A stretch of 64,000 bases of DNA. It comes from Siderastrea radians. Lineage: Eukaryota; Cnidaria; Anthozoa; Scleractinia; Rhizangiidae. A program made the position numbers and the translations under genes. Location: positions 8,366,001 through 8,430,000 of the forward strand of contig OZ024895.1 in the NCBI GenBank assembly GCA_964017195.1, read 5' to 3'. The notes beneath the pieces are model-generated. The model had not been told where the DNA came from. It did not search any database and saw only the letters and a program-made list of their open reading frames with translations. Shown here in pieces: positions 12,801 to 64,000 of the stretch (its first letter is position 1; each line of letters begins with the position of its first letter).

Positions 12801-13345
12801 TTGAAGACTTCAGAAAGGCCGTCCGCCAATGTAACGTTTACATTGAAGCAGACCACGTTTTGTTGCAGTAATTTTACTGTATACGTTTTAATATTCTTTT
12901 GTACTCCTGTTTTGTTTTGTTTTTTCGTTTTGATTCTGTGTTTTTTTCTTGTTCTCGAAGATATTAGCTTTCTTAAGCTACTATGTAAATCCGAGATTAG
13001 ATAAAGTTTATGTATGTATATGTAGCGACCAGGCCTTGAACCACTGACGTTTCGACCTTCCGATCAAAAGTCTGATAGAAAGTCCAAAGACATGTCCACT
13101 ACAACACTGTTAACTGATATTGTAGCTCCTTCAGATGGGCAGGTTTAAATTAGTAGGCAAAGAAGAACCAAGCCAGACCACCCTACTAAGTACGAAGTGC
13201 CAGGCCAGAATAAACGGTAGGTGACGTTATGAGAGATGACGAATATCGTGAAATTACTTTGTATAGTTTATAATGGCACTGACAAGAAGCATATACTGCG
13301 GATTCGATTGAATTATAGAAATGTAATTATCATGAAAAGACTCAC

Positions 13346-13726: not shown

Positions 13727-13974
13727 CTATTAAAAATAAGTATTGTTGAAATACATGGAAAGATAAATGAAAATGTAGAAACGGGCAATGATAATGATAA
13801 CCATCAGATCAGACTGCAAGTACCTTATTTATTCGTAACAAATCCGAGTACCCGGCTATCCAATTTCACACCAGTCACGCTCCCAGAACCCTTTCTTCTC
13901 ATGTTGCCTAGACCGGTAGCCCGTTAGACCTACCATGTTTTGTCACACGGGGTTTGCTTTACATGTACTGACTA

Positions 13975-41700: not shown

Positions 41701-44700
41701 TTGACCAACGCACCTGCCAATTTCCAAAGGTATGTGGAACATTGTGCTGGTGAATTACGAGACGAAATTGCCATCCCTTACTTGGACGACGTCATTGTTT
41801 TTAGCCGGTCCTTTGAGGAACATGTAGAACACGAGCGGACGGTACTCCGTCGCCTTCGACAACAAGGCATTAAACTAAAGCCAGCTAAATGTAAACTGTT
41901 TCGGAAGGAAGTTTGTTTCCTCGGAAGGATTGTGTCGAAAGTCGATCCTAGTGGAATAACTGGAATAACTGCAGTTACAAGCCTTGCACAGGAAACCCCA
42001 AAAACTGTTGGCTAGGTGAGACAACTAATGGGTTTTCTCGGCTATTACCGTTGTTATATTCCAAACTTTGCCCACATCGCCAAGCCTATATATGAATTGT
42101 TAAACAAATCAAAAACGGGAAGACCACCCAAAGTGTCCAGCCAAATGACTGCAGTTTCAAGAGAAAGGCAGTTGCCATCAGCATCGCCGATTAAGTGGAC
42201 GGATATTCATCAACAATCGCTGGAAACTTTCATCGGACACCTCACTAATCCTCCACTCATGGCTTACCCAGATTACGGAAAACCATTCATAGTTCAGACA
42301 GATGCTTCCAAAGACGGTTTAGGCGCAGTACTCTATCAGCGACAAAACGGTAAAACTAGAGTCATCGCATATGCATCCCGTGCCCTCACACCTGCAGAGA
42401 GGAACTATAATTTGCATGCCAGAAAACTGGAGTTCCTTGCCTTGAAATGGGCGGTGACTGAACAATTTTGAGACTATCGTTATTATGCTCCTGACTTCAC
42501 TGTGTATATCGATAACAACCCACTGACGTACATACTGACTTCTGCGAAGCTAAATGCAACCACCTTACGCTGGGTTGGAGAACTTGCAGACTTCCGATTT
42601 CAGGTGAAATAACGCCCAGGGAAAGCCAATGTTGACGCGGACACGTTGTCGCGAAGACCCTTGAACATTGAAGACTATATGAAAACATGTTGTGAAGAAA
42701 GTAGCTCGGAGGTTGTGCAGGTTGCTATATGTTCTGTACAGTATCAAAGCCAAGAGGATCTTCCATGGTTAACAGCGCTGACCGACTCACTCACAGCACT
42801 TGATGACTATGACAGCGTTCCAGGTGTAGAACAACACGTCGACCTGTGTGAAGCCCAAGGGCAGGACCCAGTAATTAGCAGAGTGGTGCAATTCATGAAG
42901 ACGGGGACACGACCTTCGGTAAAAGAAAGTAAAGTTGAGCCAAGAGGCGACCAAAGGTTACTGTTGGAGTGGAACAAACTTCACTTAGGAAGCAACGGCA
43001 TCCTGTACCGCAAAACCTGCCAGAGAGAGCAAGTTGTACTGCCCCTGCACCTACGAAAGACCATTTTTAAAGAACTGCACGAAGAAATGGGTCACCTTGG
43101 AGCCGAACGAGTGTACGATCTAGCTAGTGCACGCTTTTACTGGCCAAGCATGAAGAATGATATCACGCATTATGTCACTAAGGCCTGCAGATGCCTAAAG
43201 CAGAAATCACCGGCAGTCAAACAGAGGGAACCAATACACCCAATTATCATCACAGCACCCTTCCAAATGGTATCAGTCGACTTCCTCCATCTTGAACCAA
43301 GTGCAGGAGGTTACCAGTACATTTTGGTAGTGATGGATCACTTTACCCGATACGCCCAGGCGTATGCAACCAAAGACAAATCTGCGAAGACGGCAGCGGA
43401 AAAACTATACTGATGATTTCATTCTGCGGTTCGGGCTTCCTGAGACAATACACCACGACCAAGGAGGTGAATTGGAGAATAAGCTGTTTTACCATCTAGA
43501 TAAACTCATTGGAACCTGCCACTCTAGAACAACTCCTTACCATCCCCAGGGCAATGGACAAGTAGAAATGTTTAATAGAACACTGCTGTCAATGCTTAGA
43601 ACCCTGCCGGAGAAGCACAACTCCAGGTGGCGCGATCACCTCAACAAAATGGTCCATGCGTACAACTGTACAAGAAACGACTCTACGGGTTACGCGCCTT
43701 TCTTCCTGTTATTTGGCAGACACCCGCGTCTTCCGATCGACCTATTGTTTAATCTCAAGTCTCCTCCTGGATTTAGTTCTTACCCTGACTATGTAAAGAA
43801 ATGGCGCAGTGCAATGTCAGAAGCTTACAAAGTAGCCTCAGAAACTGCTCAGAGAAATGCTCAGCGAGGGGAAAAGCAGTGTGACAAGAAAGTCCGCAAT
43901 ATTGTTTTAATGCCTGGTGATCGAGTGCTGGTCCGAAACATGAGCGAACGGGGTGGTCCAGGAAAGCTGAGGGCTTACTGGGAAGATAAGGTACACATTG
44001 TGGTCGAGCAGAAGGATAAAAATATCCCAGTGTACAAAGTCAGACCAGAATCAGGAGCAAAGAAATCCCGAGTGTTACACCGAAACTTGCTGTTGCCCTG
44101 TACGTACTTACCTGTGGATGAATCTAGCTTAAAAGAGCCATGTTCTGATAGGGGCAGCAGCAGACAACAGAAGCAGACGAGTACACCTCTTAAACAACAG
44201 TTGCCTAACCCAGAAGAATCTAAGGATGAACCGGAAAGCCTTGATGAAGACGTACCATCATTCGCCCCAAGCCAGTTACAGTACTGCAATCAAGCCGACA
44301 CTTCTAAACACTCCCTCACACAGTTAGACGCACAAGGTGGAGATTCTGGTCATGACGCTGTTGAGGAAGTCGCCGCGCAACCCTGTGGTAATACGCGACT
44401 GGAAGATACCCATCAGGCCAACTCTGAACCAGTTAATGAGGAGACTGAACAGTACCAGGTTCCTGAAACATGTAACACTGCTGCTAGTCGGCCACAGAGA
44501 ATTCGAAGAGCCCCAGTCCTTATGACGTATGATGTTCCAGATCAAACTGCATATTATCCTGGTGTGACTACTAACCTACACACTGCTTTAGTTGCACCAA
44601 ACCCAGTTCCAGCGTGGCTCGGGATAACACCACCGTACCAACCAGTATGGTATTGACCACAGTGTACAGTGCCCTTCCAACCAATGTACAGTCCGTTCCT

Positions 44701-47700
44701 GAGTAATCAGTAAAGAGACGCTAGAGAACCCAAAGATCAGGACATTTGAAGATATGAACACTGTGCATGTTTTTTCCCTTCCAACCGTGTCAGTAAAAAA
44801 AAAAAAACCTTTTGGCCACGTGAATATGTTACGCCTTAACATAGCTATAGCAAGCACTAGAGGTTTATTCTTTTCAAACAAAGCAGGCATTATTTCAGCC
44901 AATATTCAAATCAGAGTACAGGAATAAGTTTCAACATTGTGGGCCTGCGCAACCCAGAGATGTGGACAGTAGTAGTAGCAGTGAAATCGAGTGTATGTTA
45001 GAAGAAGAAAGTGTAAAGTACACGCAGAAATTTTAGTTAAGTCGAACATTTTTTAGGGGGGAGAGTGTGATAGACTGGGAACTAGTTCTGTAAATCCCCC
45101 CTAAGCCCAAGCGGCCTTGTATTAAAAAAGCACATGGTCAGATCGATGGAAACTGTGTCATTTTTTTCTGTTGTTTTGACCGGTTCTTCGAGTTTACGAG
45201 GACTGAGTGACGAGAGTCGAGTTACAAAGGATTATAACGGAAACACAAAAATATTCAGCAAAAGTAACAAAGAAGAAAGCTGATAAACAGTAACAATTGA
45301 GCCAGATTTGCACATTTTCTGTAGGCCACAATGATTGTCTACTTAAATAGCACACAGACAATTGCCATAGTCCAGTTTTTATTCAGCGGTCAAGGTGAAC
45401 TCGGAAACTGGTCTATTGAGCCAATTAGATGCGCGTATTCTCAATAGACCACAGTTAATGTCTGGTAACAGTGAAAAGATAGCGACAACTGAGCCAATCA
45501 GATTCACGTATTCACCAAAGATCACGGTGAGAGCTTACTAGTAGGGAATATGCAATGATAGTTGAGACAATCACATTTGCCCTTATGATATATGCTACGG
45601 TAAATGTCCACAATTTTCTGTTAACGCCTTACCAGTTTTAGTAACGCATCCCAGTAGTTTGATGACGTGTGGATGAGGTTTAAGTGTCTTCATCACTTCC
45701 AGCTCTGATAACAAGTCTTTCTTGTCTGACTCGGAAGCGTTACCTGTATAATTCCGCAAGAAAGGTTAAACCTCTTTTTGCAAAGCGTGCATTTACTCAG
45801 CAATTATTTATTTTGTGAGTCCTTTATGTTTGAGAGGTATGGGCAACTGATTCATCAATAACTAGTGAGATGAGCTGAAAAGTATTGAAAATAACGCACG
45901 TGCTCCCATCTTTGCTGAAACTGTTTCTGTTGAAAAGATAATTTCTGAGTTTTTACTATTAGATATACTATTGGATCTTTACCTATAATCCTGCAACGAT
46001 ACTTAAGTTTCCTGCAACAATCCTTAAGGACCTTATAAAGATCATCAGGGATCCATAGTAGGATCCTGTCAAACATGATGAGGATTATTGCCACTTAAGA
46101 TCCTCTAGGATCCTACAGGATCTCAGAAAATCCTGGAGAATCTTTATAGGATTTCTAACAGGGATCGATCTTTTCTGCCGAGGAGCATTCATTTTAATAT
46201 CGAACTCAAGGTGTTCTTCCACAGACTGAAAAGATAGAACAACATTTTATGACATGACGTAAGGTTTGGCTTTGAAAGTAAAAGGTTAAATATAGCGATA
46301 TCTGTAGGTATAATTGGCACCTTTCAACATTTTCACCGCTACAGGTGTTTTCTTTGGTCTTCCTCGGAGACCTGTGGCTGTTCCTTTGGCAACCCGACCA
46401 AAAGCACCTTTACCAATGATCTTTTCAATAGTCACGTTCTCTCTAGGAATCTCCCAAGAGGGTGTTAATTGAAGGAGAGATGCATATTGGCTGATTGATG
46501 AAGTATTCGTACTGGAGAGTTTTGGCAAGTCATGTGAACGGCGTGCCTCATCCAGTTGAGGAGAGACTTCAGACGTTTGCTGGTTTGAAGAAAGACAATC
46601 CGGCTCACGAGCTTCCATTTCAAGTGCAAACTGATAAAAATAGTTTATAAACAGATAAACATTTTGCAAGTAGTTTTCAATAGTCTTGATTCTCTCTGTT
46701 ACAATGAGCTATTCCATGGAGCCTATGAAGTTAGGCTAACGTATCGATACATTGGTAGATATATATGGCAAAGGCGTTGTTGACGTCACCTGTTGATGAA
46801 TGTGTCAACCAAAGATCTATTGACTGTTGTAACAAAGAGTTCTTTTTTTAGTGGATGGCACATTTTAAAAGCAAAAACAATGTTTGTAAACAACTATCTT
46901 CCAGATATAGCTCAAGTGCGTGCTTGTTTACGTGTGATAGCGGCTAAAAAGGTAATTAAAATATTTGATAAATTAACCTTACTCTAAAATTGTTTGCTGA
47001 CGAAATTAGTCAATTTGAAGCTAATCGTTGATCTTCTGTAAAATTATTTTTTTCTTTTTACTATATTAGAAAAAACTTACGTTTTTGTTTCCCCTTGCTT
47101 CAATGGTTGTTCGTCGATGTGACCTTAAACAATAAGGATAACAAAACAAATTGCAAACATCACTGTTTTTTACTTAAGAACACAAACTCGGTTTTACTTG
47201 CAATATCTTTACTTTTAATTACTTGACGTTGTATCACTTTAGCTTCTTGTTGACTCTGTCGTTATAGAAGAATCATGAAATTGAACCCAACAAAGGTTTT
47301 TAACTTCCAATGGTTTCATCACATCATACTTCATTCTAAAAAGAAAGGAGTCTTACGCAGTTGATGAAGGCCCTTTAAATTTCGTTCTTCATTCTTTAAA
47401 TGAAGGTGACAAATTGAGAAAACCTGGGGAATTTTTAATTGCCAAGGTAAATTTCTTATCGAATTACTGACAAACCCGGATTTCACCAAGTGTGTCACAG
47501 AGGGGTGTACTAAAAAGAAGAATAAAAAAGGGAAAGAATTGGCAAGAATGAACTAGCTTACCTTTCGCCTCTCCCTGCACCTGTAAGACAAGTCAAGATT
47601 ACTAGTATTTAAAGAAATTACTTGCAAAGTCAGTCCGATTAACGCAATAAGCAATGCTTACCTTTTCTGTGCAGCCATATAATGTACATAATGAGAACAA

Positions 47701-51270: not shown

Positions 51271-51345
51271 AGTAGTTATAGAGTTGGCGGTTCTAGACCA
51301 CTTTCTTTGAAAGTGTTCTAAAACCAAGCCAACTCTATAACTACT
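51271..51345. repeat. 75-bp hairpin with 18-bp perfect outer arms
   Basis: AGTAGTTATAGAGTTGGC (51271-51288) is exactly inverted at 51328-51345, and pairing continues inwards with two or three mismatches to a tiny loop. Possible pre-miRNA-like hairpin, palindromic element end or MITE. Confidence 0.7.
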
Positions 51346-51917: not shown

Positions 51918-52475
51918 ATGAATTGTAATAAAGATATACACGATGAACTGAAAGAATCAGAAGTTGTTTGTCCTTTTTGTGACCAGCAAATAGATTTTGT
52001 CAGAAAACCAAAAGATGATAAATGCTGTGATAATCAGTATATTATTAACGACGATGGGATGTTAGCATGTCTAAGTTGTGGTGTAGTACAAGGATATAAT
52101 TATGTGAAAGAATATGTTAATTTTTATGAAAATATACATAGATTTATAAGAAAATCTGTTTACCATCGAGAGTACCACATTAACAACATATTACTCGATA
52201 TTGAAGAAAATATAACATCAAAATATCAAACTGTCAGAAACAAAAAATTGATGCTATATATGTCGAGATAGGTAAGGTTCTTAATGAAGTTAATGGAACT
52301 CGGAAAAGGATGATTAGCGTTAATTTTATTATGAGAAAGATATTCAAGATGATGGGAATACCTTACAAAAATATCCCAATTAGTAAATCGAAAAAAAACT
52401 TTAGCTTTCTGCGATAAATATTGGAAGCACATCATGTTGTTGATAGGGGATGAAATAAAATCTATTATTGGATGA
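51918..52475 (+). pseudogene. VLTF3-like (poxvirus A2L family) late transcription factor, two homopolymer frameshifts
   Basis: The first open frame (117 codons) carries a zinc-ribbon: CPFC at residues 18-21 and CLSC at 51-54. The segment SVYHREYHINNIL follows at about 80-92, matching the Y-x-R-x2-H signature of viral late transcription factor 3 proteins of large DNA viruses and some Polinton-like elements. The coding continues in two further frames up to TGA at 52473-52475. The changes lie at an A6 run (52242-52247) and an A8 run (52391-52398). Such factors direct late viral promoters. Length is short compared with nucleocytoplasmic-virus homologues. The 3' end overlaps the convergent gene by 11 bp. 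Either decay or homopolymer sequencing errors could explain the breaks. Confidence 0.65.
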
Positions 52476-52953
52476 ATACCTTATTATATTTCTTTTCAAA
52501 TTTGTCAGTGATAGGACACATATCAATGATTATATCATCGAGAATTTTGATGAAATCAAGAAATTCTTTGTCATTATACTCCAGTCCTCTCATAAAGCAC
52601 CGTAAATGAGTTAAAACCTTTTCATACGTAGTGTACGCGAATTTAGACATTTCTATCTTCTTTTTGAAATTTTTAGTCTCTGAATATGTTTTAAGTAAGA
52701 GCCCAGTACCGGATATCACTCCAAGAGGAATAGGGTTTAGTGTTACACCACCAACTATTGTTCCTGTAGCTACCAATAAAGCGGATCCAATATTACATGC
52801 AAGTTCTGTTTTTTTGAAATATTTGTAATTCATTTTAGCAAGCCAGTATTTCTTATGATAGAATTTGTATAATGCTTTCAACTCAGATATTTGATTTTCC
52901 GTTAATTTTTCTGAAACATGGTTCCAATTGAATATGCTTTCACGGCTATCCAT
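52465..52953 (-). CDS. Virus-like cassette protein with paired hydrophobic segments (162 aa)
   Basis: Unknown family. A basic/aromatic helical N-terminus (1-50) leads to a hydrophobic, glycine-rich stretch at residues 51-88 (GSALLVATGTIVGGV, then proline hinge, then GVISGTGLLL) that could form a membrane hairpin. A charged helical C-terminus follows. By position, as last gene of the minus-strand set with fibre and ATPase, it may be a virion membrane or membrane-active protein. That is inference. Start ATG 52953 has an A/T-rich context. Confidence 0.7.
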   Translation of the reverse strand: MDSRESIFNWNHVSEKLTENQISELKALYKFYHKKYWLAKMNYKYFKKTELACNIGSALLVATGTIVGGVTLNPIPLGVISGTGLLLKTYSETKNFKKKIEMSKFAYTTYEKVLTHLRCFMRGLEYNDKEFLDFIKILDDIIIDMCPITDKFEKKYNKVFIQ

Positions 52954-52966
52954 ATATATTATATGG

Positions 52967-53080
52967 TTACATTTTTTCTTTTTTGAACGATTTCTTAATA
53001 CTGATGTATAATTTTCTAATGTTTCGAACTATTTTTTCTATATTCTCAATAATTTCGTTGATTAAAGTTGCTGTTTTCAT
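52967..53080 (-). CDS. Small basic amphipathic peptide (37 aa) in virus-like cassette
   Basis: ATG 53080 to TAA 52967. It reads MKTATLINEIIENIEKIVRN, then IRKLYISIKKSFKKEKM: a continuous predicted helix with a strongly basic C-terminal half, 13 bp upstream of the 162-aa gene. Small basic or amphipathic virion peptides are known in adenovirus- and adintovirus-type genomes, but no sequence match is claimed. It could be spurious given its length. A still shorter frame (24 codons) lies between it and the fibre gene. Confidence 0.4.
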   Translation of the reverse strand: MKTATLINEIIENIEKIVRNIRKLYISIKKSFKKEKM

Positions 53081-53237
53081 ATATATTATTATGTTGGATT
53101 ATTTATTATGTTTTTCATCGGAAACCTCAACGCTTATTTCTTTTGGGATAATATATTCTAAAAAGCATTCCATGCTCCAATCAGATGGATATCCTGAATT
53201 GTGCTATATTATAAATGAAAATTTTTGTGGAAAGTTA

Positions 53238-55025
53238 TCACGGACTTGTTTGATACTCGATACGAAGTATAATTGCGTTGTAACTTTTCCAAATATCATC
53301 ATTCATATTTAGTTCAAAAGCCAAAATCCCAGACGAAGGCATTTGGAAAGAATTTAGGTTTATTGTCTGATACCACCCACTTTTTTTTGAGGTAAAATTT
53401 CTTGAAGAGCTTAGAGTTCCAGTAAAAAAATTCCGTAAAGATGTTTTGAGTTTCAAAGATATTTTTTTGTGTCTATGTACAGTGACATGAGAATCCGAAG
53501 AAGTGATTGGACGCGTACAATATATATCAATATTTTTCAAAATCGCTTCACCTGGCAATGACATTATTTCAGCGCCATTTAAAACAAAATTTTTGTTCCC
53601 TTTTGTCGAATTTAAAAAACCGTTTATGTGGTGAATGGAAGAGCGTAGTTGGTGCCCGTTTAAAGACAAATCTGTTTGCATTACCATTTTACCATTTTCT
53701 ACAACGTACGCCGTATCATACACATCCGAGTCTACATTACTCTGTGATCCTTTGACTCCATATACAATCAAATAACCAACTCCTTGAGTGGAGCTACTTG
53801 CAGTGCCCTGACAATGCATGTCAATGTAAATGTATTCGGGAGGAGTTATGCTCCACTTATGTAAGTGAACAATCGATCTGCTGTAATTAACAAACAGCTT
53901 AGTTGATTGTTGACCAATATTTAGTGAAGTGGAAACGACACTCACTGACAAATTTGTTGTGCTTGGAGTGAAAAATTCAATAGCTAAAGTGTACTCGCCT
54001 TCTGGAAGTTTGAACATGTTAAAGCCAATGCGAGAAGAATACTCATTTTGAGCGTCTTTCCCCATTTTAAATTTATAAGCTTTTTTGTTGACGTTGTGGG
54101 GGGAACCAGAAAAGTCAACAATGCCATCAACTATTATGTTGTTTTCACTTGAAGATTCATCGGCATTTTCCATGAGATACCTGAAAACGTCTTTCTTGTT
54201 GGTTGAGCTGGTGATGTGAGACTCCTTGATTTTTGTGTCAAAGTAAGTTTTCAGCCCTACAGTCACATCACCTTTGGCGGCGTGTACCTTACTGCTGACA
54301 TAGCCGACATTAGCTGCTGATTTTATGTCTTTGTCATCGGTGTTCAAGTTGATTATTGTTTTTTCATTTAAATTCAAGTTTCCAGTCATATTGTTGGTGC
54401 CATCAACTTTGAGAAACTTTTTTTGTGTCATGTCATCAATTCTGTTGTTAACAAACTCGACACATGCGGCGTCTCTTTGGTTTGATGGAAGATCAAGATT
54501 GATAATTGAATTATTTTTCATATCAATATCAGATCCTTTATCCAGTTTTTTTTCAAGCTGATTTTCGACATACTTTTTATTAACACAATGGTCTGAATTA
54601 ACTGGATCTTTCACATTTGTGATGAAATTATTGTTCATGTCAATATGTTGCTCCATTCGACCTCCTTCCTTCTTTGACAAGAATATCTCTCTTTGCGATT
54701 CATAACTGATAACCTTGTTGAGATTACCATGAACTGGATAATTGTCTTTTGGGACAACGAGTGACCCTGTCATCGTATCACCAGATATTGCAACAAATTT
54801 AGATGTATCCACACTTGGAATCTTAGCTATTTCAGAATCAATATATTGTTTAGTAACCACATCATCATTATTAGTTCCTTGTTTTACATTCACTAATTTT
54901 TTATTCTGCATATCATAATCATTATTAGCATCTAATTTAAATCCAATACCAGGTAAACCTCTTAAACTTATCTGACCTTGTCCTTGAGAATCATCATGAT
55001 TAAGGATACCGTTAGTATAACTCAT
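53238..55025 (-). CDS. Phage-tail-fibre-like protein (595 aa) of virus-like cassette
   Basis: The N-terminal 30 residues are glycine/glutamine-rich. Four repeats follow at about 39-62, 129-153, 168-192 and 216-243 with the pattern M-x-N-N-x-I-x-N, then acidic residue, then K-x-Y-V. This is the repeat of trimeric tail-fibre shafts, together with the GDTMTGSL and NNMTGNLNL phrases. The C-terminal 300 residues are beta-rich, with conserved-looking ITPPEYIYIDMHCQG and YLIVYGVKG, likely a receptor-binding or knob-like domain. The start is 11 bp after the ATPase stop, so the two are probably co-transcribed. Related proteins are common as unannotated genes in cnidarian assemblies. Fully open. Confidence 0.75.
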   Translation of the reverse strand: MSYTNGILNHDDSQGQGQISLRGLPGIGFKLDANNDYDMQNKKLVNVKQGTNNDDVVTKQYIDSEIAKIPSVDTSKFVAISGDTMTGSLVVPKDNYPVHGNLNKVISYESQREIFLSKKEGGRMEQHIDMNNNFITNVKDPVNSDHCVNKKYVENQLEKKLDKGSDIDMKNNSIINLDLPSNQRDAACVEFVNNRIDDMTQKKFLKVDGTNNMTGNLNLNEKTIINLNTDDKDIKSAANVGYVSSKVHAAKGDVTVGLKTYFDTKIKESHITSSTNKKDVFRYLMENADESSSENNIIVDGIVDFSGSPHNVNKKAYKFKMGKDAQNEYSSRIGFNMFKLPEGEYTLAIEFFTPSTTNLSVSVVSTSLNIGQQSTKLFVNYSRSIVHLHKWSITPPEYIYIDMHCQGTASSSTQGVGYLIVYGVKGSQSNVDSDVYDTAYVVENGKMVMQTDLSLNGHQLRSSIHHINGFLNSTKGNKNFVLNGAEIMSLPGEAILKNIDIYCTRPITSSDSHVTVHRHKKISLKLKTSLRNFFTGTLSSSRNFTSKKSGWYQTINLNSFQMPSSGILAFELNMNDDIWKSYNAIILRIEYQTSP

Positions 55026-55036
55026 ATATTAATGGT

Positions 55037-55678
55037 TTAGATTCTTTCATCGAAATTTCGGGCTACCTTTTTTTTGACCTTATCAACATACAAAAAACTA
55101 TATGGATCCTTAGTAGCTTTCTGATAATCTGATTTATTTATGTTCAGTTCTCGGCAAATCATCGATTGCTCGTTTATAGAAGGAAAATCAAAAACACAAA
55201 AATGTGAACTATTCAGTCTTATTGTTTTATCGGTTCCGTAATAGCTTTGACTCAAATATATACAACAACAATTTTTATTTCTTGAATTGGTGAAGTAGTC
55301 TCGTATCCGTTCGTCACTTTTCTTACCTGTATTCAAATAGTCATCAAATATGATTAATTTTTGGTTTTCATCAGACAAATCTGTCAGAGGGATGATTTCA
55401 TCGTTACTTGCTTCTATCACGTCATAACCGACCTCTTTTGATATTGGTTCAAGAGATTTCAACAGATGCTTATATTTGCTTTGGGAGAGATTTCGAGCAT
55501 AAAGGTATATCTTATCAAAATAGAGAAGCCTATATATCATATCCAGCAGAAGATTTGTTTTACCACCACCAGAGGGAGCACAAATAAGCATCCTAAAACA
55601 TCGGTTTGGCATGAAACTCTTTAATTGAACAAAATCGTCATTGTCATCATCTTGGATGTCGTAATTTTGAATCTTCAT
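55037..55678 (-). CDS. A32/FtsK-HerA-type genome-packaging ATPase (213 aa)
   Basis: Walker A APSGGGKT at residues 34-41, Walker B LIIFDD at 107-112, and a sensor-like block NKNCCCIYLSQSYYGTDKTI at about 133-152 whose glutamine (143) is the usual sensor of this family. Length fits the small packaging ATPases of Polintons, virophages and adintoviruses, which pump DNA into capsids. First gene of the minus-strand set, divergent from the PPxY gene across a 129-bp spacer. Intact, with all motif residues present. Confidence 0.85.
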   Translation of the reverse strand: MKIQNYDIQDDDNDDFVQLKSFMPNRCFRMLICAPSGGGKTNLLLDMIYRLLYFDKIYLYARNLSQSKYKHLLKSLEPISKEVGYDVIEASNDEIIPLTDLSDENQKLIIFDDYLNTGKKSDERIRDYFTNSRNKNCCCIYLSQSYYGTDKTIRLNSSHFCVFDFPSINEQSMICRELNINKSDYQKATKDPYSFLYVDKVKKKVARNFDERI

Positions 55679-55807
55679 ATGATATTATGTTATACAATTT
55701 CACACGCTATGCGACACGCTATGCGACACGCTATGCGAGCGTTTTTATATATGATAACCCTAATTTTTCCGAACAAAATACGAAATTTTATGTAAACAAA
55801 TGATATA
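55679..55807. promoter_or_regulatory. Bidirectional control region with three 12-bp repeats
   Basis: The 129-bp gap between divergent start codons holds three exact copies of ACACGCTATGCG (55702-55713, 55714-55725, 55726-55737). A TATA-like TTTTATATATGAT follows near 55743. Its placement between the two gene sets suggests an operator or late-promoter element. Confidence 0.5.
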
Positions 55808-56815
55808 ATGAGTTTACTCAAATGGAAAGAAATGGCTGAGAAACGATCCGAGCTTGGTAAGAAGATTAACACAGTAAGAGATACAATAAAACAAAAAAAG
55901 ATATCTGATCAAATAGGTGAAGTCGAGGCAGAGAAACTTTTCAAACCTATAACATCTGAGTTAAAGGAACTTACAGCCCCAAAAGCACCGTTGAGAAGAT
56001 TGGTAAAGAAAAAGCGACCTGTTCCAGATTATGGAATAGCTATTGATGATGAAGTGCCTGATTATGGATTGGACGATTTGTTTGATCAACCTGTTTTACC
56101 TGAAAACGAGAAACAGATAGTTCCAAAACCTCCATCTTATGAAGATGTCCTTGAGGATTTAGCATCAGGTAAAAAACAAATGTATATAGATCCAGAATAC
56201 ATGTATGAACCTGAAGATCTTCCTCCAGAATACGAAGAAGAAGTACCAGTACCAGATTACGAAATTCTTGAAGAGGATAGAATAAATCAAGCTTTAGATC
56301 AACTTCAAATACCGAATTATGATGATATTGAATTACAACTTCAACAAGAAGATATGAATGACAAAAAGAGGAAATCTTATCTTACCAAAACCCTTAAAAA
56401 GGCTAAAGAGAAACGGCAACAACTAAATGGTTATTGGAGTGATATCACTAAAAAATTAAAAAGTGGTTTAATGACTGAAGCTGAGGCTCAACATCGAAGA
56501 AAAATTATTCAAGATACAAGAAAGGTTCTTACTGATTATATGAATTACCATCAACAAAAACTCCAAAAACTCAAATCTATTAAAGGATCTGGTTTGAAGA
56601 AAAAAACAAAAAGAGGTGGACAGGTAATGTTTTTCAACAATCCGACAGAAATGATTAAAAAACTTGAACTGATTATCGGATCGATGATTGCCGGAAATAA
56701 TAGCATCGAATTACGGAATACAGGCGTCGCTCTTCTCGACATCTTGTTGAGAAATTCAATACTCAATAAGCCACAATACAACAAAATATACAAAAACTAT
56801 TTTAGTCTAAACTAA
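55808..56815 (+). CDS. PPxY late-domain protein of virus-like cassette (335 aa)
   Basis: Helical N-terminus (1-60), then a proline/acidic middle with PPxY motifs PPSY (108-111) and PPEY (139-142). There are repeated VPDY units (72-75, 83-86, 148-151) and IPNY near 168. A basic segment and conserved-looking C-terminal domain (from about 270, VMFFNNPTEMIKKLELIIG) follow. PPxY binds WW domains of Nedd4-type ligases and serves as a budding signal in enveloped viruses and retroelements. At 258-262, IKGSG fits the adenovirus-protease consensus (M/I/L)-x-G-x-G, just before the C-terminal domain. Possibly a processed minor capsid or matrix-like protein; function not established. 8 bp separates it from the next gene. 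Confidence 0.7.
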   Translation: MSLLKWKEMAEKRSELGKKINTVRDTIKQKKISDQIGEVEAEKLFKPITSELKELTAPKAPLRRLVKKKRPVPDYGIAIDDEVPDYGLDDLFDQPVLPENEKQIVPKPPSYEDVLEDLASGKKQMYIDPEYMYEPEDLPPEYEEEVPVPDYEILEEDRINQALDQLQIPNYDDIELQLQQEDMNDKKRKSYLTKTLKKAKEKRQQLNGYWSDITKKLKSGLMTEAEAQHRRKIIQDTRKVLTDYMNYHQQKLQKLKSIKGSGLKKKTKRGGQVMFFNNPTEMIKKLELIIGSMIAGNNSIELRNTGVALLDILLRNSILNKPQYNKIYKNYFSLN

Positions 56816-56823
56816 TCATATAT

Positions 56824-57585
56824 ATGAATAGACAACTTGTATTATCATCCCATACAGTAAAAAACCAAAATGGTAATAAACCATCGGATTTCACAATCAA
56901 ATACCGTAATCCGATAATACTAGATTCAAACAGACAATATGAAATCGGCCTAGACCGAATCATTTCGATGTCATTCACTTGGTTTAATGTGACAAACGAA
57001 CTCAATAATCAGAAAATAAGATATTCGGCAGATAGTGGTACTAATTGGACGGAAATTATATTTAATCCTGGAGTCTGGAATTACGTTGATTTTGACAATT
57101 TAATCAAAGAAAAAACAAAAACAGGGACTTCATCAAACCCTCAATATCCAATCACTCTGGAGTTTAACGATACTGTATTCAGGACAATAATAACACTAGC
57201 CTCAAATTACAGATTAGATCTTACTCAAAGTAATTTTAATGATCTTATTGGTTTCAATAAAAAGATTCTAACAAGTAGTGTAAATGTCGGAGATTACATT
57301 CCTAATCTCTCACAAGACAGAGAAATATTGAATGTTCATTGTGATTTGATAAGTGACAGTCTTGTGGATGGTGAAGAGTCAGATATTATATATAGTTTCA
57401 GTACTTCAACTCTCACTCCGAGTTATAGTTTTACACAAGAGCCTCGACGAGTACAGTTCAATCCTGTCAATAAAAATACGATTAATAAAATTCGGATTTA
57501 TATCACCGACGGTAAACGAAGAATTATAGATCTTAATCATAGTGACACTTCATTCAGTTTGATTTTAAGAGAGAAGAGAGATTAA
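56824..57585 (+). CDS. Predicted jelly-roll capsid-type (penton-like) protein (253 aa)
   Basis: A beta-strand-rich protein of about the length of single jelly-roll minor capsid proteins. It begins with SHTVKNQNGN, and later has regularly spaced strands (ITLEFNDTVFRTIITL, IPNLSQDREILNVHCD). The ending, NTINKIRIYITDGKRRII, then FSLILREK, resembles the last strands of viral jelly rolls. Together with the ATPase and fibre it fits a penton or capsid role. The fold is inferred from strand pattern and context, not from a detectable signature. The gene is open and ends 21 bp before a GC-rich hairpin. Confidence 0.6.
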   Translation: MNRQLVLSSHTVKNQNGNKPSDFTIKYRNPIILDSNRQYEIGLDRIISMSFTWFNVTNELNNQKIRYSADSGTNWTEIIFNPGVWNYVDFDNLIKEKTKTGTSSNPQYPITLEFNDTVFRTIITLASNYRLDLTQSNFNDLIGFNKKILTSSVNVGDYIPNLSQDREILNVHCDLISDSLVDGEESDIIYSFSTSTLTPSYSFTQEPRRVQFNPVNKNTINKIRIYITDGKRRIIDLNHSDTSFSLILREKRD

Positions 57586-57603
57586 TCTAACTAATAGCGG
57601 AAC

Positions 57604-57632
57604 TCCTCCGCGGCCGTAGGCCGCGGGAGTGG
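57604..57632 (+). terminator. GC-rich hairpin after the cassette
   Basis: CCGCGGCC-GTA-GGCCGCGG forms an 8-bp perfect stem with a 3-base loop. It stands out in AT-rich DNA, 20 bp after the last gene. It may mark a transcript end or an element boundary. Confidence 0.4.
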
Positions 57633-57713
57633 AGCCCCATAGTCATACTTAAAGGCGTGCTGGTAATTTTTTATGGTCATGGCAAGCGGAATGGCTCGCG
57701 GGCGCGTGCGCCG

Positions 57714-57771
57714 TACATACATACATACATACATACATACATACATACATACATACGTACGTACGTACGTC
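57714..57771 (+). repeat. (ACAT)n/(ACGT)n microsatellite
   Basis: About 11 tandem TACA units followed by four GTAC units. Confidence 0.95.
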
Positions 57772-57794
57772 GCATTTCATGACATTCTTACATG

Positions 57795-58222
57795 AGGCAA
57801 TTTTCGCTGGAAGAGCAGAGACGAAGGAAAAGAGACGGAGATAGAGAACAACAACGGAAAAGAAGGAGAAACGCCACTGAAGAACAGCGTCAAGCACCCG
57901 GTCAAGCAGAGCAGAAACGAAAACGAAAAAGACGAAGGAACAGTACAGCAGAGAGATAAAAGCAACTAGAAATAAGACGGAACGGTACTGAAGAACAACG
58001 CCAGAGGAAAACTGAGAGACGCCGACATAGAACTGTAAACATGTCGGGTACAGTTTTCTTGATTTTTATCTATTTGTGATTGGAAATAATTTTGTACCAC
58101 CGAATAATTTACGTCTACGTTTTTGTATTTTATTCTACAGATCATCAAGGGGAAGGAAGTCGTAATCGAGAACGGAGAAGAAATTTACGCCAAGGACAGC
58201 ATGAAGTTACAAGGTGTTCAGT
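57795..58222 (+). pseudogene. Arginine-rich repeat fragment, Helitron-like N-terminus
   Basis: The frame repeats R-R-N-A/S/G-T-E-E-Q-R-Q three times (RRNATEEQRQ, RRNSTAER, RRNGTEEQRQ) with one in-frame stop. A GT...AG interval at 58049-58140 could join it to HQGEGSRNRERRRNLRQG. Such repeats precede the helicase in cnidarian Helitron-like proteins. No Rep or helicase motif is present. Confidence 0.4.
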
Positions 58223-58229
58223 TAAAATC

Positions 58230-59195
58230 AATCTCCGTGCTTTAGCAAAGTTTGTTTAACAAAAAAAAAATGCACTGTTACAAAAGTGAACTTTTCGTCA
58301 AAACTTAAACACCGCACCTTTTACGGTATGTCATTTAATACTACTCATAGAAAGTGAAAAAAAGAGGAAAAGAAACAAACCAAAACAAAACGAAAAAAGG
58401 GAACGCAATTTGAGGGGGTAGTGCAAAGGTGATGGTATCATGTTACAAGATTTCGCAATCTGGCCGCGCGCGTGGCTGAGAACGAGGACACAATACCTTT
58501 TCAACGTTAGAAATGAAAAGATAGGCTAAAGAAACTCGACTGCCGGTCCTAAATGCCTATTAAGTGGAATATGGATGTCTTTATTGAGAGGAGAAATATG
58601 GATTGCTTTGGCCCGATGCTTTAACTGAACCAGCGTGAAGACCTGCTTGCTGAGTTTCCCGGGTGAGTTTCTCGGAATTTTTCAATCATTTCACAGAATA
58701 TTACGGTATGGGAAATTCGCTTTTATTTATCTCAACTCAACTGGCTCATTTCCAATTCCCCGTTATCTCGAACAAAGAGAAAGTTGTCTTGGCTTTGGTC
58801 ATAAATATAATATTTCCAGTTATTTACTTTTACGACGATAACCCGCTTTTCTCAGCTTTGAAGAATACCAGTGTGTTTTGTTTTCACGGAGCAAAGTGTA
58901 GCCAGGCAAAGGAGAAAACAGCTTATGAAAGCATGCAGTGAAGTAAAAGGCGAAAACAAGTACCAACGCGAATCGTCAAGATGTTAACTCATTGACTAAA
59001 CAAAAGAATAACAAAACAGGACATCATTGATATATGCCTCGTTCTTTTTAACTCTGAATCCAGTCATTGTTTACAATATCCTCGGCAAAACCCCTACCAA
59101 AATCCATGCAAGTAACGAATCGATGAAAAAGCACATCCTCATTTGAGCTTATGTATCTACTGAAGTAGGTCTTAAATATTTTTTGACCCTTATTC
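58230..59195. other. Non-coding stretch
   Basis: AT-rich, with A-tract near 58260. Short frames at 58635-58941 do not resemble proteins. Confidence 0.4.
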
Positions 59196-59568
59196 TGATT
59201 TCTGAATTGTTTGCTTGAATTTCAATAATTTCATTTGGCTTCACTTAAGCTCAAGACCAATAAGCTTATGTGTGAATTAATTGTGTTTATCACTTCTGAA
59301 TTGTTTGCTTGAATTTCAATAATGTTATTGGGCTTCACTTAAGCTCAAGACTTAAGCTTATGTGTGAATTAATTGTGTTTATCACTTATGAATTGTTTGC
59401 TTGAATTTCAATAATTTTATTGGGCTCCACTTAAGCTCAAGACTTAAGCTTATGTGTGAATTAATTTTGTTTATCACTAATGAATTGTTTGCTTGAATTT
59501 CAATAATTTTATTTGGCTTCACTTAAGCTCAAGTTAAGCTTATGTGTGAATTAATTTTGTTTATCACT
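59196..59568 (+). repeat. 92-94-bp tandem repeat, 4 copies
   Basis: TGAATTGTTTGCTTGAATTT begins at 59203, 59297, 59389 and 59481. Units also share TTAAGCTCAAG and AAGCTTATGTGTGAATTAAT. Confidence 0.9.
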
Positions 59569-59575
59569 CAATATT

Positions 59576-60513
59576 ATGCATGGTTCAATTCTACCTGTTA
59601 CCATCCCCCCCTTCCCGGGCCTACCCCCGGGGATTTGCATTTTTTTTTTCTCACTTGGCAGTCTATTCCCCACCCCCGGGCACACAGAAAGAGACGATTC
59701 CCCAACCCCGGGACTCCTCATCGACCACAAATACGTTGTTTTGTGTACAAAACCTAAATGACGATATTGATTTCCATACAATAGCAAAACCAGACGTTTT
59801 GACAAGAACTTAAACGCTTTTCTAGAGTTTATTGAACGAAGGACACTACATGCATAATATAATAAAAACATGAACAGAAAACTGAAGAAAAAACTCTACC
59901 TGCACTGGCATACAGCTGGCAAGTAAAGAAATTTTCTTCGCCATGTTTTATTCTAAATATAGCGCATACGCACAAGAGGCCCATGAACAAATTGATGGCA
60001 GCATTTAAGGGAGTTTTTCTTAGCTTGTTTCATAAGAACACTGGACTGAGATCTCTGTTTAACATAAAGCTGTGCATCCGTTTTTATATAGAGTCTATTT
60101 AAGTCGTCTTATTATAAATATAAACACACTGAAGAAATATTTCTTTGTTTGTGATGACCACCATTCATTCGAGTACGCATCAAATGCACATTCGTCCAAC
60201 AATTTATGATAAACATACTGTCAAACACAGATTTTAATTTTGAGATATTATTCTTCTCTAAACAGTCTGCTACAAATACTAGAGATTTTCACTGGAAATA
60301 GGCAATCTTCTCCACGCGGTCTGGGGCTGTCATATCAACTGAGAAGTGACGTACTTTACAAGAACAACAAGAAGTTATTTTCGATTTGCCCCACTCTTCT
60401 ACCCCCAGGACAAGACCACTTCAAACAATTCCCCACCCCCGGACTCGAGGGCTGGACTTGTCCCCGGGGTTGCCCGGTGGGGGGATGGTAACAGGCAAAA
60501 TTGAACCATGCAT
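59576..60513. mobile_element. Non-autonomous TIR element, about 938 bp
   Basis: ATGCATGGTTCAATT at 59576 and its inverse ending at 60513 begin arms of about 60 bp. The inverted match continues through CCTGTTACCATCCCCCC. The interior near both ends is rich in CCCCGGG runs. No transposase. Confidence 0.75.
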
Positions 60514-60514
60514 T

Positions 60515-61755
60515 AGTTCAGAAGGCGACTGCAATTTGCCATTTTTTTCGATCTCAGTTAACCTACATGTATGAAATAAAAGCACTGCATTGTGGAAAGT
60601 GCTTCTTACTATTTGTCACTTATAATGGAATGTTCATGTTTTAGAAAGTTCAAATAAATACTGCATGCATTGTTTGGTTTTCTCAAAAACCACTGTATTC
60701 CCAAGGGGGGGGGGGGGGATCCAGATGTAAGCAAAGGATTTTTTTTATGCAATTGACATATTTGTACTGATGTGTTTTTGCTTCCTAAAGGCAATCTGGC
60801 TTGTTTAACTGACAATTGTCTGCTGGGATTAGTTAGAACATGTTTGATTAATTGCAACTGGCTTTTTACTGAGTTAAGCAAAGGAGACTGGAGATGATTG
60901 AACATCCAGTAAACTTAAATGAGGTCCTGCCATTTTGTTGCTCATTCAATCGATCGATGTTCAAGTGCTTTACCTTACCTGTATTATAGCAATGAACCGT
61001 GCAAAGGGTGGAAGACATAACCACTTTTTAGACAAATGGTTAAACGTGTTTGGATAGCTGCAAATGAGGGGTTCAGGCGATGATTTATTAATCATTTGTC
61101 AGGATTCCACAAAAGCTGGAAAGAAGAACACTTTCACGGGTGCCGGGATGCAAAAATTTCCAACAGTAGGCACTTGTACGTCTCATGAATCAGGTGGATC
61201 ACAAAAGTAAAGCAAAGTATAGCTTTGGCAACAACATTTCAAAGCTGGAAGTGACATTATGCTAGCAAAGTGAATGACGACTCCCTTAATAATTGACATT
61301 GAGTATAATTACTATTCTGTTCACCCATTCTTTCTGTTCATTAATGTCACATTGGTCAAAAATTGCGTTGTGAATGCTTTAATAATGTATGTTACATATT
61401 TGATGTTGTCAAAAGAAAAACAATAAAGTTAATATTATTTTAAGGATGAAAGTAATTTGCCAGGCGCTCGCTCTCACGAATTTGCACTCCAAGAACTGAA
61501 AATTTTCTTCAATTGATGAACTTAGAGTTGAGGAGGGGAAATAAAACAGAGATGCTCCAATGAAAGTCTAATTTATTTGAATTGTAACTACAGTGTAACT
61601 TTTATTTGCAGTCCTTTATCAGGCATTTAAGCCTTGACTTTTAGTGGCCCTGGTCAGTTTTAAATCGCCACTGGCGACTGGGCGACTGCCAATTTTTAGC
61701 CCTGAATTTGTTTTGTTTTGTGTTTTTTTTTTCACTGATCCTTTTTTTTCCGTTC
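60515..61755. other. Non-coding stretch
   Basis: Contains a 15-base G run near 60703 and an AATAAAG signal-like site near 61422. No exon or protein-like frame is recognised. Confidence 0.4.
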
Positions 61756-61758
61756 TAG

Positions 61759-61812
61759 GCATATATGCCAGCAGTAATCAGTGATGCAGCATTTTCTTAC
61801 AGTGAAGTTAAG
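61759..61812 (+). CDS. Candidate 54-bp exon of an unrecognised plus-strand gene
   Basis: A pyrimidine tract and TTCTAG acceptor precede 54 bp, open in one frame (AYMPAVISDAAFSYSEVK), followed by a consensus donor AAG|GTACGT. Length is a multiple of three. No neighbouring exon could be paired with it and I do not recognise the peptide. Confidence 0.3.
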
Positions 61813-62950
61813 GTACGTGGAAGATATCAGTTATATAATTAGCCCAGCTTACGTATCTAACTGTTCAGTAAATTGAACTGGATTGAATGCAGTCATTGGG
61901 TAAATTTGGGTTCGGTAATTGAACACAATAATTATTAACTAAAAATATGCCCATATATACAGCTGTGTTTGATTCCATTCAATTTCTGAACCCAGTCAAA
62001 CATAATTAAACAGTTTTAAAATCATTCAAATATATAGATTTAGAGGATGCAAAATTTGAAGCAACAGTTTCTAGAGATTTGCTTTATTATGAATATAAAA
62101 GTTATGATGGCCAAGCACATATCTTAGTTTATACATTTTTGTGCTGTACTTCTTCTATTCTTTGTAAAAACAGTAATTGCATGCTTCGGATTGTAAAGAA
62201 GGGTGGGGCGATTCGCCAAAAAATCGGAACTTACTAGTTTCCTCTTAGTTTTACTGATTTTCTTTTTAATGTGCGGTTGGGGACTGGCAGTAGCTATGCA
62301 CGCGCAATGTTCAGTTGTGGAATTCAGATGTTCTTCATTATTTCACCAATATAGCGGCACGAAATGCTGAAAACAGCGTATGACAGAATACCATCCACAA
62401 AAATCCCCTAGGAACAATGCGAGATCTGTAGTTAAGAATCTCCCTTCATCAAGTTACAAAATCCTTTTTCCATGGTGATGTGAGATTTATCTGGATGGCT
62501 ATATGGTTAATTAACTTAATGCAGAATGAATCAAATAGTTACACCATGTTAACATGATACCGGTATGAACTCACCCAGGTATGGCTCGCACTGTTATGAG
62601 ATTTTGTGCTGTAATCATGTAACAAATACAGCAATAGGGAACTGGGGTGAACTTGTATCAGAATGAAAAGCATACAATGAACTGGTGTCATGCAAACACC
62701 CCCTCAGACTAAAGTTGAGCAGCTCTCAAGAATGTTTAACAACATCCTCAGATACCCAGCGGCAGTAAAACCCTGATTTCATTAAAGCACTGTAAACTCA
62801 GACTGGTGCAATTTCTGGTGCAGTCTGAAATTCAGACTGGCATAAGTATTTACATGAGACCAACCATCTCTAAAAATACAGTTTACCTTTTGTCCACTTG
62901 GAATGTTTCAATGCCACTTGTTTAAATGCACATGCTTAAAACTCAAAACA
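61813..62950. other. Non-coding stretch
   Basis: AT-rich DNA with no coding signal. If 61759-61812 is an exon, this is intron. Confidence 0.35.
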
Positions 62951-62953
62951 AAT

Positions 62954-63422
62954 ACTGTAAACTGCCACTTATAAGCCCGCCTACTTACAAGCCCCCCCCC
63001 CCCCGGCTATAGGCCCATCCACCTGTAAACAAAAAATACATCCGGTAATAAGCCCCCCCCCCCCGGATATAAGCACTGCTCTAGTTTTCCCTGTTTCTTT
63101 AATATTAAGCACTCTCACAGAAAACTGCAAAGATTAACTCTGAGCTTCTGTTTTGTTATGTTCCGGTTATGTTCGTGTTGTTGCAGTTTTGATTTTGTTG
63201 TTAAAATGGAAATGAATTTGACTTATTATGACATTTCAAAGGTTAATTACAAACTGGTACATTAAAAATGTATTCCGATCAACACTGCTGTGGCTCATTT
63301 CGTAACGTTTTTCTTACTCCGCTTATAAGCCCCCCCGGATATAAGCCCCTCCATTTATAAGCCCACCCAAAACCCTTTACAAAGTTGTATCACCCTAGGG
63401 CTTATAAGCGGCAGTTTACAGT
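62954..63422. mobile_element. MITE with TIR ACTGTAAACTGCC and TATAAGCCCC repeats
   Basis: ACTGTAAACTGCC at 62954 is inverted at the right end (63422), extending through CCACTTATAAGCCC with one change. The interior repeats ATAAGCCCC with C-runs in three places near the ends. Confidence 0.8.
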
Positions 63423-63632
63423 GTCTTAAAACATTTGGGGTAGTTTTTCATGCGAGCGTGCATGCTCAGTGCATGACGCGGCATGACATAATGCCAATGT
63501 TGTGAATTGTGTGCGCAGTATTGATGCGCATAAAAAAATTGCGCAAATATCCTTAGAACCTCCCTAAAGCCATGGGCTTACTTTTGGCAACTGAGATAAT
63601 TAAACATTTACTCTGCTTTGTTTTCCATACAG

Positions 63633-63755
63633 GTTTTTATTCCATCAACCTGATGTCAGAAAAAATATGGCAGTTTATTGTAAGGATTTGGTTAATAAAT
63701 TTGTACTCTTAGCTACATGTATGTTCCCAGGCAGACATTATCAATTGAAATAAAA
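63633..63755 (+). other. Possible terminal exon
   Basis: After TTTTCCATACAG one frame stays open for 40 codons (LFHQPDVRKNMAVY, then KDLVNKFVLLATCMFPG) to a TAA. An AATAAA signal lies about 20 bp later. Weak evidence; it might belong with the 61759 exon. Confidence 0.2.
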
Positions 63756-63927
63756 AATTTTAAGAGCAGTTTTGAAATAAAGTTTTATATTTTTGGTTTT
63801 TTTTTGCAAATTTTGATGTTGGTGATTAGTTTGACTGTATCCACATACACTTTATGTTCCCTCAGTAATTAACACATCCATACACGAGTAGCATTTATTT
63901 GGGAGTAACCCTACTCCCCCCTCCCCC

Positions 63928-63957
63928 CTCACACACACACACACACGCACACACACA
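63928..63957 (+). repeat. (CA)n microsatellite
   Basis: Fifteen CA-type dinucleotides, interrupted once by CG. Confidence 0.95.
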
Positions 63958-64000
63958 ACTAACTTCCCAGGAATGATGATTCGGAGTTATCTGACTGAAT

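What the first reader, a model, noticed from the sequence alone, without database searches (positions are those of the whole stretch)
51918..57585. Endogenous virus-like morphogenesis cassette in a cnidarian genome
Six to seven compact intronless genes in divergent blocks encode a packaging ATPase, fibre-like protein, PPxY protein, predicted jelly-roll protein, membrane-hairpin protein, small basic peptide and VLTF3-like factor. Seen: Walker motifs, fibre repeats, zinc ribbon, spacing of 8-13 bp between co-oriented genes. Known: this set resembles Polinton/adintovirus/Polinton-like-virus particle genes. Inferred: a distinct animal-associated element group whose genes are widespread but unnamed in corals and Hydra.
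Basis: partly seen in the sequence, partly recalled or inferred. Interest (0 to 1): 0.9.

Follow-up and report, generated by a model that had tools for sequence, protein, structure and literature searches.

The report
Split virus-like transposon with swappable fibres
The genes are the left part of an ancient virus-turned-jumping-gene that is present in very many copies in this genome, and copies appear to exchange the tips of the fibre protein that would let a particle grip a cell.

Summary
The gene block is real, but it is the left part of a larger element. The window lies in an 804.8 Mb assembly. Other copies continue past the window's last gene with a capsid-protein candidate, protease-like region, PLA2-like gene, rve+chromodomain integrase, Bro-N and a PolB-type polymerase. 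One copy has matching ends and a 6-bp target duplication. It is a polinton/adintovirus-type endogenous element. The window copy is split by a ~7.9 kb insert of another repeat at ~57594; capsid-candidate, integrase and Bro genes resume beyond the window. Its VLTF3 frame is broken. The ATPase is A32-like. The 253-aa model, though poor, best matches pentons. Another copy's VLTF3 passes Pfam's cut-off. The capsid model is poorer; its first PDB rows are double-jelly-roll proteins led by vaccinia D13. Copies: 1895 and 1414 first-look candidates; 150 scored each. Penton, capsid candidate and integrase show purifying selection. New here: the fibre is modular, and two proximal and two distal head classes occur in all four combinations, implying recombination. 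Related chimeras are in print (PMC11071296, PMC11244446).

The parts
51271..51345 (.). left end of the element: terminal palindrome (AGTAGTTATAGAGTTGGC ... GCCAACTCTATAACTACT)
   Evidence: Inverted repeat in the window; exact motif found in 5 of 6 left-flank loci L015-L020, not in L019, and at both ends of the C5 copy L046/L009
51507..51860 (.). subterminal tandem repeats (85-bp x2, 13-bp x about 8), in part also present inverted near the right end of another copy
   Evidence: L009 8441-8546 matches window 51853-51696 in reverse
51918..52271 (+). VLTF3-like gene, N-terminal part with zinc ribbon; frame broken, remainder in other frames to about 52420
   Evidence: piece 52259-52411 hits PF04947 E 0.0084, below cut-off; a longer frame in L020 hits PF04947 E 8.3e-6, 26.1 bits, cut-off 25
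52465..52953 (-). 162-aa protein with hydrophobic Gly-rich hairpin; weak SLATT-like match
   Evidence: NF033632 E 0.011, 15.6 bits against cut-off 55
53238..55025 (-). 595-aa fibre: conserved N-terminal tail, repeat shaft, two-module head
   Evidence: PHROG head-decoration and tail-fibre/tail matches E 7.7e-7 to 2.6e-4; modularity
55037..55678 (-). 213-aa A32-type packaging ATPase
   Evidence: PF04665 E 8.5e-9, 35.7 bits over cut-off 22.8
55679..55807 (.). region between the two divergent gene blocks, presumably promoters
   Evidence: 88-100% identical over 66-100% of its length in 20 of 20 copies
55808..56815 (+). 335-aa protein with PPSY and PPEY motifs and one site (IKGSG) fitting the recalled adenain consensus
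56824..57585 (+). 253-aa penton-like protein
57594..64000 (.). foreign repeat inserted in the element; continues about 1.5 kb beyond the window; ends GCGGAACTCC / GGAGTTCCGC
   Evidence: 643 first-look candidates, 40 scored at 97-100%; starts at the same base in two other places; element resumes at about L045:1523

Best explanation
The block is the left part of one copy of a high-copy polinton/adintovirus-type endogenous DNA virus family. Shown: a gene order (terminal repeat, VLTF3, hairpin protein, fibre, ATPase | PPxY protein, penton, 122-aa basic protein, capsid candidate, protease-like region, DUF5679-like, PLA2-like, integrase with chromodomain, Bro-N, polymerase, terminal repeat) read from pieces of different copies; a 6-bp target duplication in one copy; purifying selection. 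Inferred: the integrase inserts the element, PolB copies it by protein priming, VLTF3 turns on late genes, a double-jelly-roll capsid and penton build an icosahedral shell filled by the A32 ATPase, the fibre plugs into the penton by its conserved N-terminal tail, PPxY motifs recruit host NEDD4/ESCRT factors, and the PLA2-like protein helps breach membranes at entry. Copies recombine in the fibre gene, so one genome carries many shaft and head combinations. The window copy is split by a ~7.9 kb insertion and has a broken VLTF3.
For: ATPase PF04665; penton structure matches; VLTF3 PF04947 above cut-off in L020; integrase PF00665 2.5e-11 plus PF00385 1.2e-7, PLA2-like PF08398 1.8e-7, Bro-N PF02498 1.8e-28; polymerase: EndoVII domain, hhalign to phi29 polymerase P 6e-4 but Prob only 28%, with NNSVFGK and DTDS stretches aligned, 37% identity over 877 columns to an ORF of an IMG/VR contig that also has integrase and A32 ATPase; capsid model matched by double-jelly-roll proteins; TSD CACTGT and matching ends, 14,546 bp copy; 26 of 26 ATPase-penton pairs within 5 kb are divergent, gap 1117-1152 bp, among 50 of 150 ATPase and 74 of 150 penton places compared; same order in 20 of 20 copies, 19 with penton; dN/dS medians: penton 0.166 (17 of 21 copies with a usable frame), PPxY 0.288 (15 of 21), ATPase 0.082 (20 of 21; biased, copies were picked by ATPase), capsid candidate 0.098 (7 of 7), integrase 0.117 (6 of 7).
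Confidence: 0.9

Rival explanations
1. Fossil of a giant virus (Nucleocytoviricota), not of a polinton-type element: VLTF3, A32 ATPase and a D13/p72-like capsid come from a large integrated genome.
For: VLTF3 is called diagnostic of Nucleocytoviricota in PMC11253617 (passages); capsid model rows are led by vaccinia D13, faustovirus and ASFV p72.
Against: Integrase with chromodomain, terminal repeats with 6-bp duplication and a 14.5 kb copy, polymerase that aligns with phi29 polymerase. No further large-virus hallmark gene was found among the ORFs scanned.
Confidence: 0.05
2. Pure transposon: the element now moves only inside cells, and virion genes are kept merely as passengers or host-tamed genes.
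For: Very high copy number; many copies damaged (broken VLTF3 here; 7 of 20 further copies lack a fibre frame of 450 aa or more with the tail); the 8 IMG/VR scans found one relative only, 49% identical in its best segment (none; one).
Against: Capsid candidate, penton and integrase are under strong purifying selection among copies, and fibre heads diversify; passengers would decay.
Confidence: 0.3
3. Satellite (virophage-like) virus: VLTF3 without any RNA polymerase gene seen implies late transcription by a co-infecting large virus.
For: A VLTF3-like frame with the same start lies next to the left end in 6 of 6 other copies, open to the end of each locus; no RNA polymerase match in the ORFs scanned; the best penton rows are virophage proteins, mavirus and Sputnik.
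Against: Only pieces were scanned; VLTF3 might work with host polymerase; no helper is known to me from this host.
Confidence: 0.15
4. Fibre differences among copies arose by rapid point mutation, not by exchange of modules.
For: Several head classes are partly alignable with each other, so some divergence is gradual.
Against: All four combinations of two proximal and two distal classes (4, 4, 3, 8 of 22 copies; 3, 2, 3, 7 without the six loci that are cut distally); abrupt changes within one gene: L032 is 99% identical to the window in the middle part but matches only 44% of the distal part (89%), and L036 shows the reverse (distal 92% over 90%, middle 73% over 78%).
Confidence: 0.05

Closest known systems
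Adintoviruses / animal polintons (Mavericks); a Stylophora coral adintovirus is named in PMC11071308 (passages)
   Same: rve integrase with C-terminal chromodomain, PolB-type polymerase, penton-like protein, A32-type ATPase, double-jelly-roll-like capsid candidate, 6-bp target duplication, terminal inverted repeats
   Different: carries VLTF3 and Bro-N; the capsid candidate's first PDB rows are poxvirus D13 and large-virus capsids; no OTU domain detected in the polymerase. No sequence of a reference adintovirus was compared.
MELD viruses with poxvirus-like virion genes (Meld23486, 'Hexonrif'), PMC11071296 (section 16 read; legend and other passages)
Adintovirus-like insertions of Amoebidium with VLTF3, PMC11244446 (passages)
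   Same: VLTF3 beside PolB and minor/major capsid genes, many copies, terminal repeats
   Different: host is a protist relative of animals; complete insertions about 30 kb there; Dam methyltransferase reported there, not seen among the ORFs scanned here
IMG/VR contig L048 (IMGVR_UViG_3300028392_002905)
   Same: polymerase with EndoVII-like domain (below cut-off there), rve integrase, A32 ATPase
   Different: polymerase only 37-49% identical; no tblastn match (E 0.01) of the penton, capsid candidate, PPxY, hairpin, VLTF3 or fibre in the 13.8 of 17.4 kb held

Membership tests
Polinton/Maverick-type element | retrovirus-like (rve) integrase | tested here: met
   PF00665 E 2.5e-11 in L010, and 1.2e-12 in L045, the right part of the window's own copy
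Polinton/Maverick-type element | protein-primed PolB | tested here: met
   hhalign to phi29 polymerase P 6e-4, Prob 28%, motif stretches aligned; homologous to the polymerase-like ORF of L048; no Pfam PolB hit, so the assignment rests on these and on recalled motifs, and protein priming itself is inferred
Polinton/Maverick-type element | terminal inverted repeats and 6-bp target duplication | tested here: met
   one copy, CACTGT on both sides; left terminal motif in 5 of 6 further copies
[quoted passage not shown]
   model pLDDT 41.9; BFVD matches E 3.5e-7 on, PDB first rows D13, faustovirus, p72, Z at or under 7.1
Polinton/Maverick-type element | single-jelly-roll penton | tested here: met
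Polinton/Maverick-type element | adenain-like cysteine protease | tested here: inconclusive
   PF00770 14.7 bits against cut-off 21.3
Adintovirus (definition in PMC11071296) | integrase with C-terminal chromodomain | tested here: met
   PF00385 E 1.2e-7 at residues 298-334 of 335
Adintovirus (definition in PMC11071296) | N-terminal OTU-like domain in PolB | tested here: inconclusive
   no OTU match in Pfam for L010, L013 or L014 N-parts; viral OTU domains may escape Pfam
Adintovirus (definition in PMC11071296) | hexon recognisable by BLASTp to reference adintoviruses | not tested
   no reference hexons at hand
Nucleocytoviricota | VLTF3 | tested here: met
   PF04947 26.1 bits, cut-off 25, in L020
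Nucleocytoviricota | A32-type packaging ATPase | tested here: met
   PF04665; PMC5294986 (passages) says these ATPases intertwine with those of polintons, so not discriminating
Nucleocytoviricota | genome of 100 kb or more (35-45 kb in mriyaviruses; abstract start of PMC11253617) | tested here: not met
   a copy with both ends is 14,546 bp, its polymerase shortened by about 2.5 kb
Nucleocytoviricota | D5 helicase-primase | tested here: inconclusive
   no match among the ORFs scanned; not every ORF was scanned

The most novel reading that the evidence does not exclude
A still-circulating animal virus lineage, a polinton chassis with a poxvirus-like morphogenesis module, that uses its many genomic copies as a library: recombination between copies shuffles fibre shafts (trimeric stalk or collagen) and head domains and so changes which cells particles bind.
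Probability: 0.3. Interest if true: 0.85.

Novelty: new variant of a known kind. Interest (0 to 1): 0.62.

Why it matters
Particles of Mavericks/polintons have not been observed (abstract start of PMC8097293). A family with very many copies, capsid-candidate genes open in 7 of 7 loci looked at and under purifying selection, and recombining fibre heads makes the question testable: heads need not diversify unless something binds cells. The gene mix (polinton integrase and polymerase with VLTF3 and a D13-like capsid candidate) also bears on how polinton-type and giant viruses are related; PMC11253617 (passages) states that VLTF3 homologs were not detectable outside Nucleocytoviricota. Lone VLTF3 genes reported in Exaiptasia (PMC5294986, passages) could be remains of such elements; that is inference.

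Tried and rejected
Rejected: (1) that the window copy is a truncated cassette. All six right-flank loci stop matching the window at 57597 and no right-half gene is in the window, so I noted it as truncated (note); L045 showed the right half resuming after a foreign repeat. The same note calls VLTF3 'intact' in L015-L020; in fact those frames are open up to the end of each locus, which cuts them. (2) Terminal repeats flanking the block within the window: none, because the right end lies outside. (3) Clean duplication at the 7.9 kb insert: the script printed no shared direct repeat of 6 bp or more, so the kind of insert is unsettled.

Led nowhere: viral-contig scans with penton, ATPase, fibre, capsid candidate and one polymerase query; PDB sequence searches (no credible match); a pattern search for the window copy's own right end and a count of capsid copies in the genome (not completed). 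Taxonomy of the host and of relatives: not available. Shared contig lengths among the three protein searches (17, 16 and 8 pairwise among the 120 rows listed of each) support linkage, not adjacency. In BFVD the capsid model also matches a 'Penton capsid protein [Adintovirus sp.]' (E 4.3e-5), a reminder that such a poor model does not separate jelly-roll proteins well.

Biases and dropped rows: copies L021-L040 were picked from the list ranked by ATPase similarity, so ATPase identity and its dN/dS are biased; the other genes were not selected on. One search kept frames within 12 aa of the window's length (ATPase 20, PPxY 15, penton 17 of 21 including the window) and dropped pairs with dS of 0.02 or less (6 ATPase, 0 PPxY, 2 penton). 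Copy counts are first-look candidates (1895, 1414), of which 150 each were scored; 5 of 150 ATPase and 8 of 150 penton places have an internal stop. In one search, 6 of 28 copies lack the linker and were left out; of the 22 counted, L002, L003 and L005-L008 are from loci cut at the distal end, and some come from broken fibre frames. Some of the 13 long fibre frames end early or in another frame (L035, L036, L039).
Full report
What is in the window. Six ORFs lie at 51918-57585 as described. The ATPase passes Pfam's cut-off for Pox_A32 (35.7 bits, cut-off 22.8). The 595-aa protein has head-decoration and tail-fibre matches (E 7.7e-7 to 2.6e-4). The VLTF3 reading frame is broken: its C-terminal part lies in other frames, and a 51-aa piece of it has PF04947 as its only match, below cut-off (E 0.0084). 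Two co-oriented gene pairs are 11 and 8 bp apart.

The genome. The window is G000:C9:8366001-8430000 of an 804,772,777-base assembly in 439 contigs. The ATPase had 1895 first-look candidates and the penton 1414; 150 were scored in each case, at 94-100% and 95-100% identity over full or almost full length, 5 of 150 and 8 of 150 with an internal stop. Among 50 of the 150 ATPase and 74 of the 150 penton places that I compared, 26 pairs lie within 5 kb, all divergent, 1117-1152 bp apart. In public proteins, 749 penton, 1017 ATPase and 1345 capsid-candidate relatives pass E 0.001 (the best 120 of each listed, no organism names); 17, 16 and 8 contig lengths are shared pairwise among the listed rows.

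The block is part of a larger element. I fetched right flanks of six copies and left flanks of six others. All six right flanks match the window up to 57597 and then continue: a 122-aa basic protein, a 429-aa capsid candidate, an ORF with a protease-like end (PF00770 below cut-off), a DUF5679-like small protein (E 0.013, below cut-off), a PLA2-like protein (PF08398 E 1.8e-7), an integrase with chromodomain (PF00665 E 2.5e-11, PF00385 E 1.2e-7), a Bro-N protein (PF02498 E 1.8e-28) and a long polymerase ORF with an endonuclease VII domain; not every copy has every frame open. The polymerase has no Pfam PolB match, but its profile aligns with phi29 polymerase (P 6e-4, Prob 28%), and it shares 37% identity over 877 columns with an ORF of an IMG/VR contig that also carries an A32 ATPase and an rve integrase. 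Each of the six left flanks holds a VLTF3-like frame with the same start beside the left end, open up to the cut end of the locus; the longest, L020, is the one tested and passes the Pfam cut-off (26.1 bits, cut-off 25).

Ends. The left end is a palindrome at 51271-51345. The copy at C5:40544201-40558746 has the same terminal motif at both ends and CACTGT on both sides, a 6-bp target duplication; it is 14,546 bp long. About 2.5 kb of its polymerase gene is missing relative to L010, leaving a 560-aa frame.

The window copy is split, not truncated. From 57594 the window holds another repeat (643 first-look candidates; 40 scored at 97-100%) that begins at the same base in two other places with different flanks. 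Beyond the window, in L045, the element resumes about 7.9 kb later with the 122-aa, capsid-candidate, protease-like, PLA2-like, integrase and Bro genes. The insert's ends read GCGGAACTCC and GGAGTTCCGC; no clean duplication was found.

Selection. Median dN/dS is 0.166 for penton (17 copies, 134 pairs), 0.288 for the PPxY protein (15, 105), 0.098 for the capsid candidate (7, 21) and 0.117 for the integrase (6, 15); every pair used is below 1. The 122-aa protein gives 0.163 (5 copies; 9 of 10 pairs below 1). The ATPase value (0.082; 20 copies, 184 pairs) is biased because copies were chosen by ATPase similarity. Only open frames were used.

The modular fibre. In 20 further copies the gene order is the same (fibre, ATPase and PPxY in 20, penton in 19), but the fibre varies. 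Thirteen of the 20 have a fibre frame of 450 aa or more with the tail, 545 to 684 aa long, at 47-97% identity to the window's in the best stretch. A conserved tail (MSYTNGILNH) is followed by a stalk that matches a trimeric-adhesin stalk (PF05662, below cut-off, L022 and L034) or a collagen repeat (PF01391, above cut-off, L025; similar GXY runs in L038), then by heads. Of 28 copies, the window included, 22 have a conserved linker; splitting there gives two proximal and four distal classes, and the two main classes of each occur in all four combinations (4, 4, 3 and 8 copies; 3, 2, 3 and 7 without the six loci cut distally). L022, L030 and L040 carry a further head unlike the rest (33% or less). 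DNA identity jumps inside the gene. Head classes also cut across the PPxY genes: window-type heads sit beside PPxY genes 96% (L035) and 86-87% (L031, L026, L038) identical to the window's, other heads beside 97% (L034) and 85% (L039). Exchange between copies is the simplest account.

How it probably works. The integrase inserts the element with a 6-bp duplication (shown for one copy); the polymerase copies it by protein priming (inferred from family); VLTF3 drives late transcription (inferred; by which polymerase is open, since no RNA polymerase gene was seen among the ORFs scanned); capsid, penton, ATPase and protease build and fill a particle (inferred); the fibre binds the penton by its tail and a cell by its head (inferred by analogy with adenovirus, recalled); PPxY motifs and the PLA2-like domain would serve release or assembly and entry (recalled roles).

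Verdict. A real, very abundant polinton-type endogenous virus family with a poxvirus-like morphogenesis module; the window copy is damaged and split. New variant of a known kind; the recombining fibre is the part most worth following.

Noticed in passing
window 57594-64000 and L045:1-1522: A ~7.9 kb repeat with ends GCGGAACTCC/GGAGTTCCGC, 643 first-look candidates in the genome, inserted in the virus-like element; it holds a stretch coding Arg/Lys-rich repeats (about 57800-58000) and a 92-bp tandem repeat at 59167-59568.
   Followed up: partly
window 38778-44656: Gypsy-type LTR retroelement remains: RVT_1 (E 7.8e-33), H2C2 and rve integrase domains, with a gag-like frame upstream.
   Followed up: partly
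window 46289-46708(-) and 3044-3403(-): Two similar kinase exons (PF07714; the second just under its cut-off) 43 kb apart and a weak Ig-like match at 13257-13808(-): perhaps pieces of receptor kinase genes of a local family.
   Followed up: partly
L016:8911-9441(-), L018:8994-9464(-): A further ORF of about 157-177 aa between the left end and VLTF3 in some copies, without a credible family match (L016 scanned); the window copy has tandem repeats there instead.
   Followed up: no
L009:3581-3732 and related loci: Cross-matches of about 150 bp some 0.3-0.4 kb apart suggest that part of the small DUF5679-like gene is duplicated in several copies.
   Followed up: no
L048 (IMGVR_UViG_3300028392_002905): A 17.4 kb viral contig with the only polymerase relative found in the viral collection (49% identity in the best segment), an rve integrase, an A32 ATPase and a 589-aa ORF at the place of a fibre.
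   Followed up: partly
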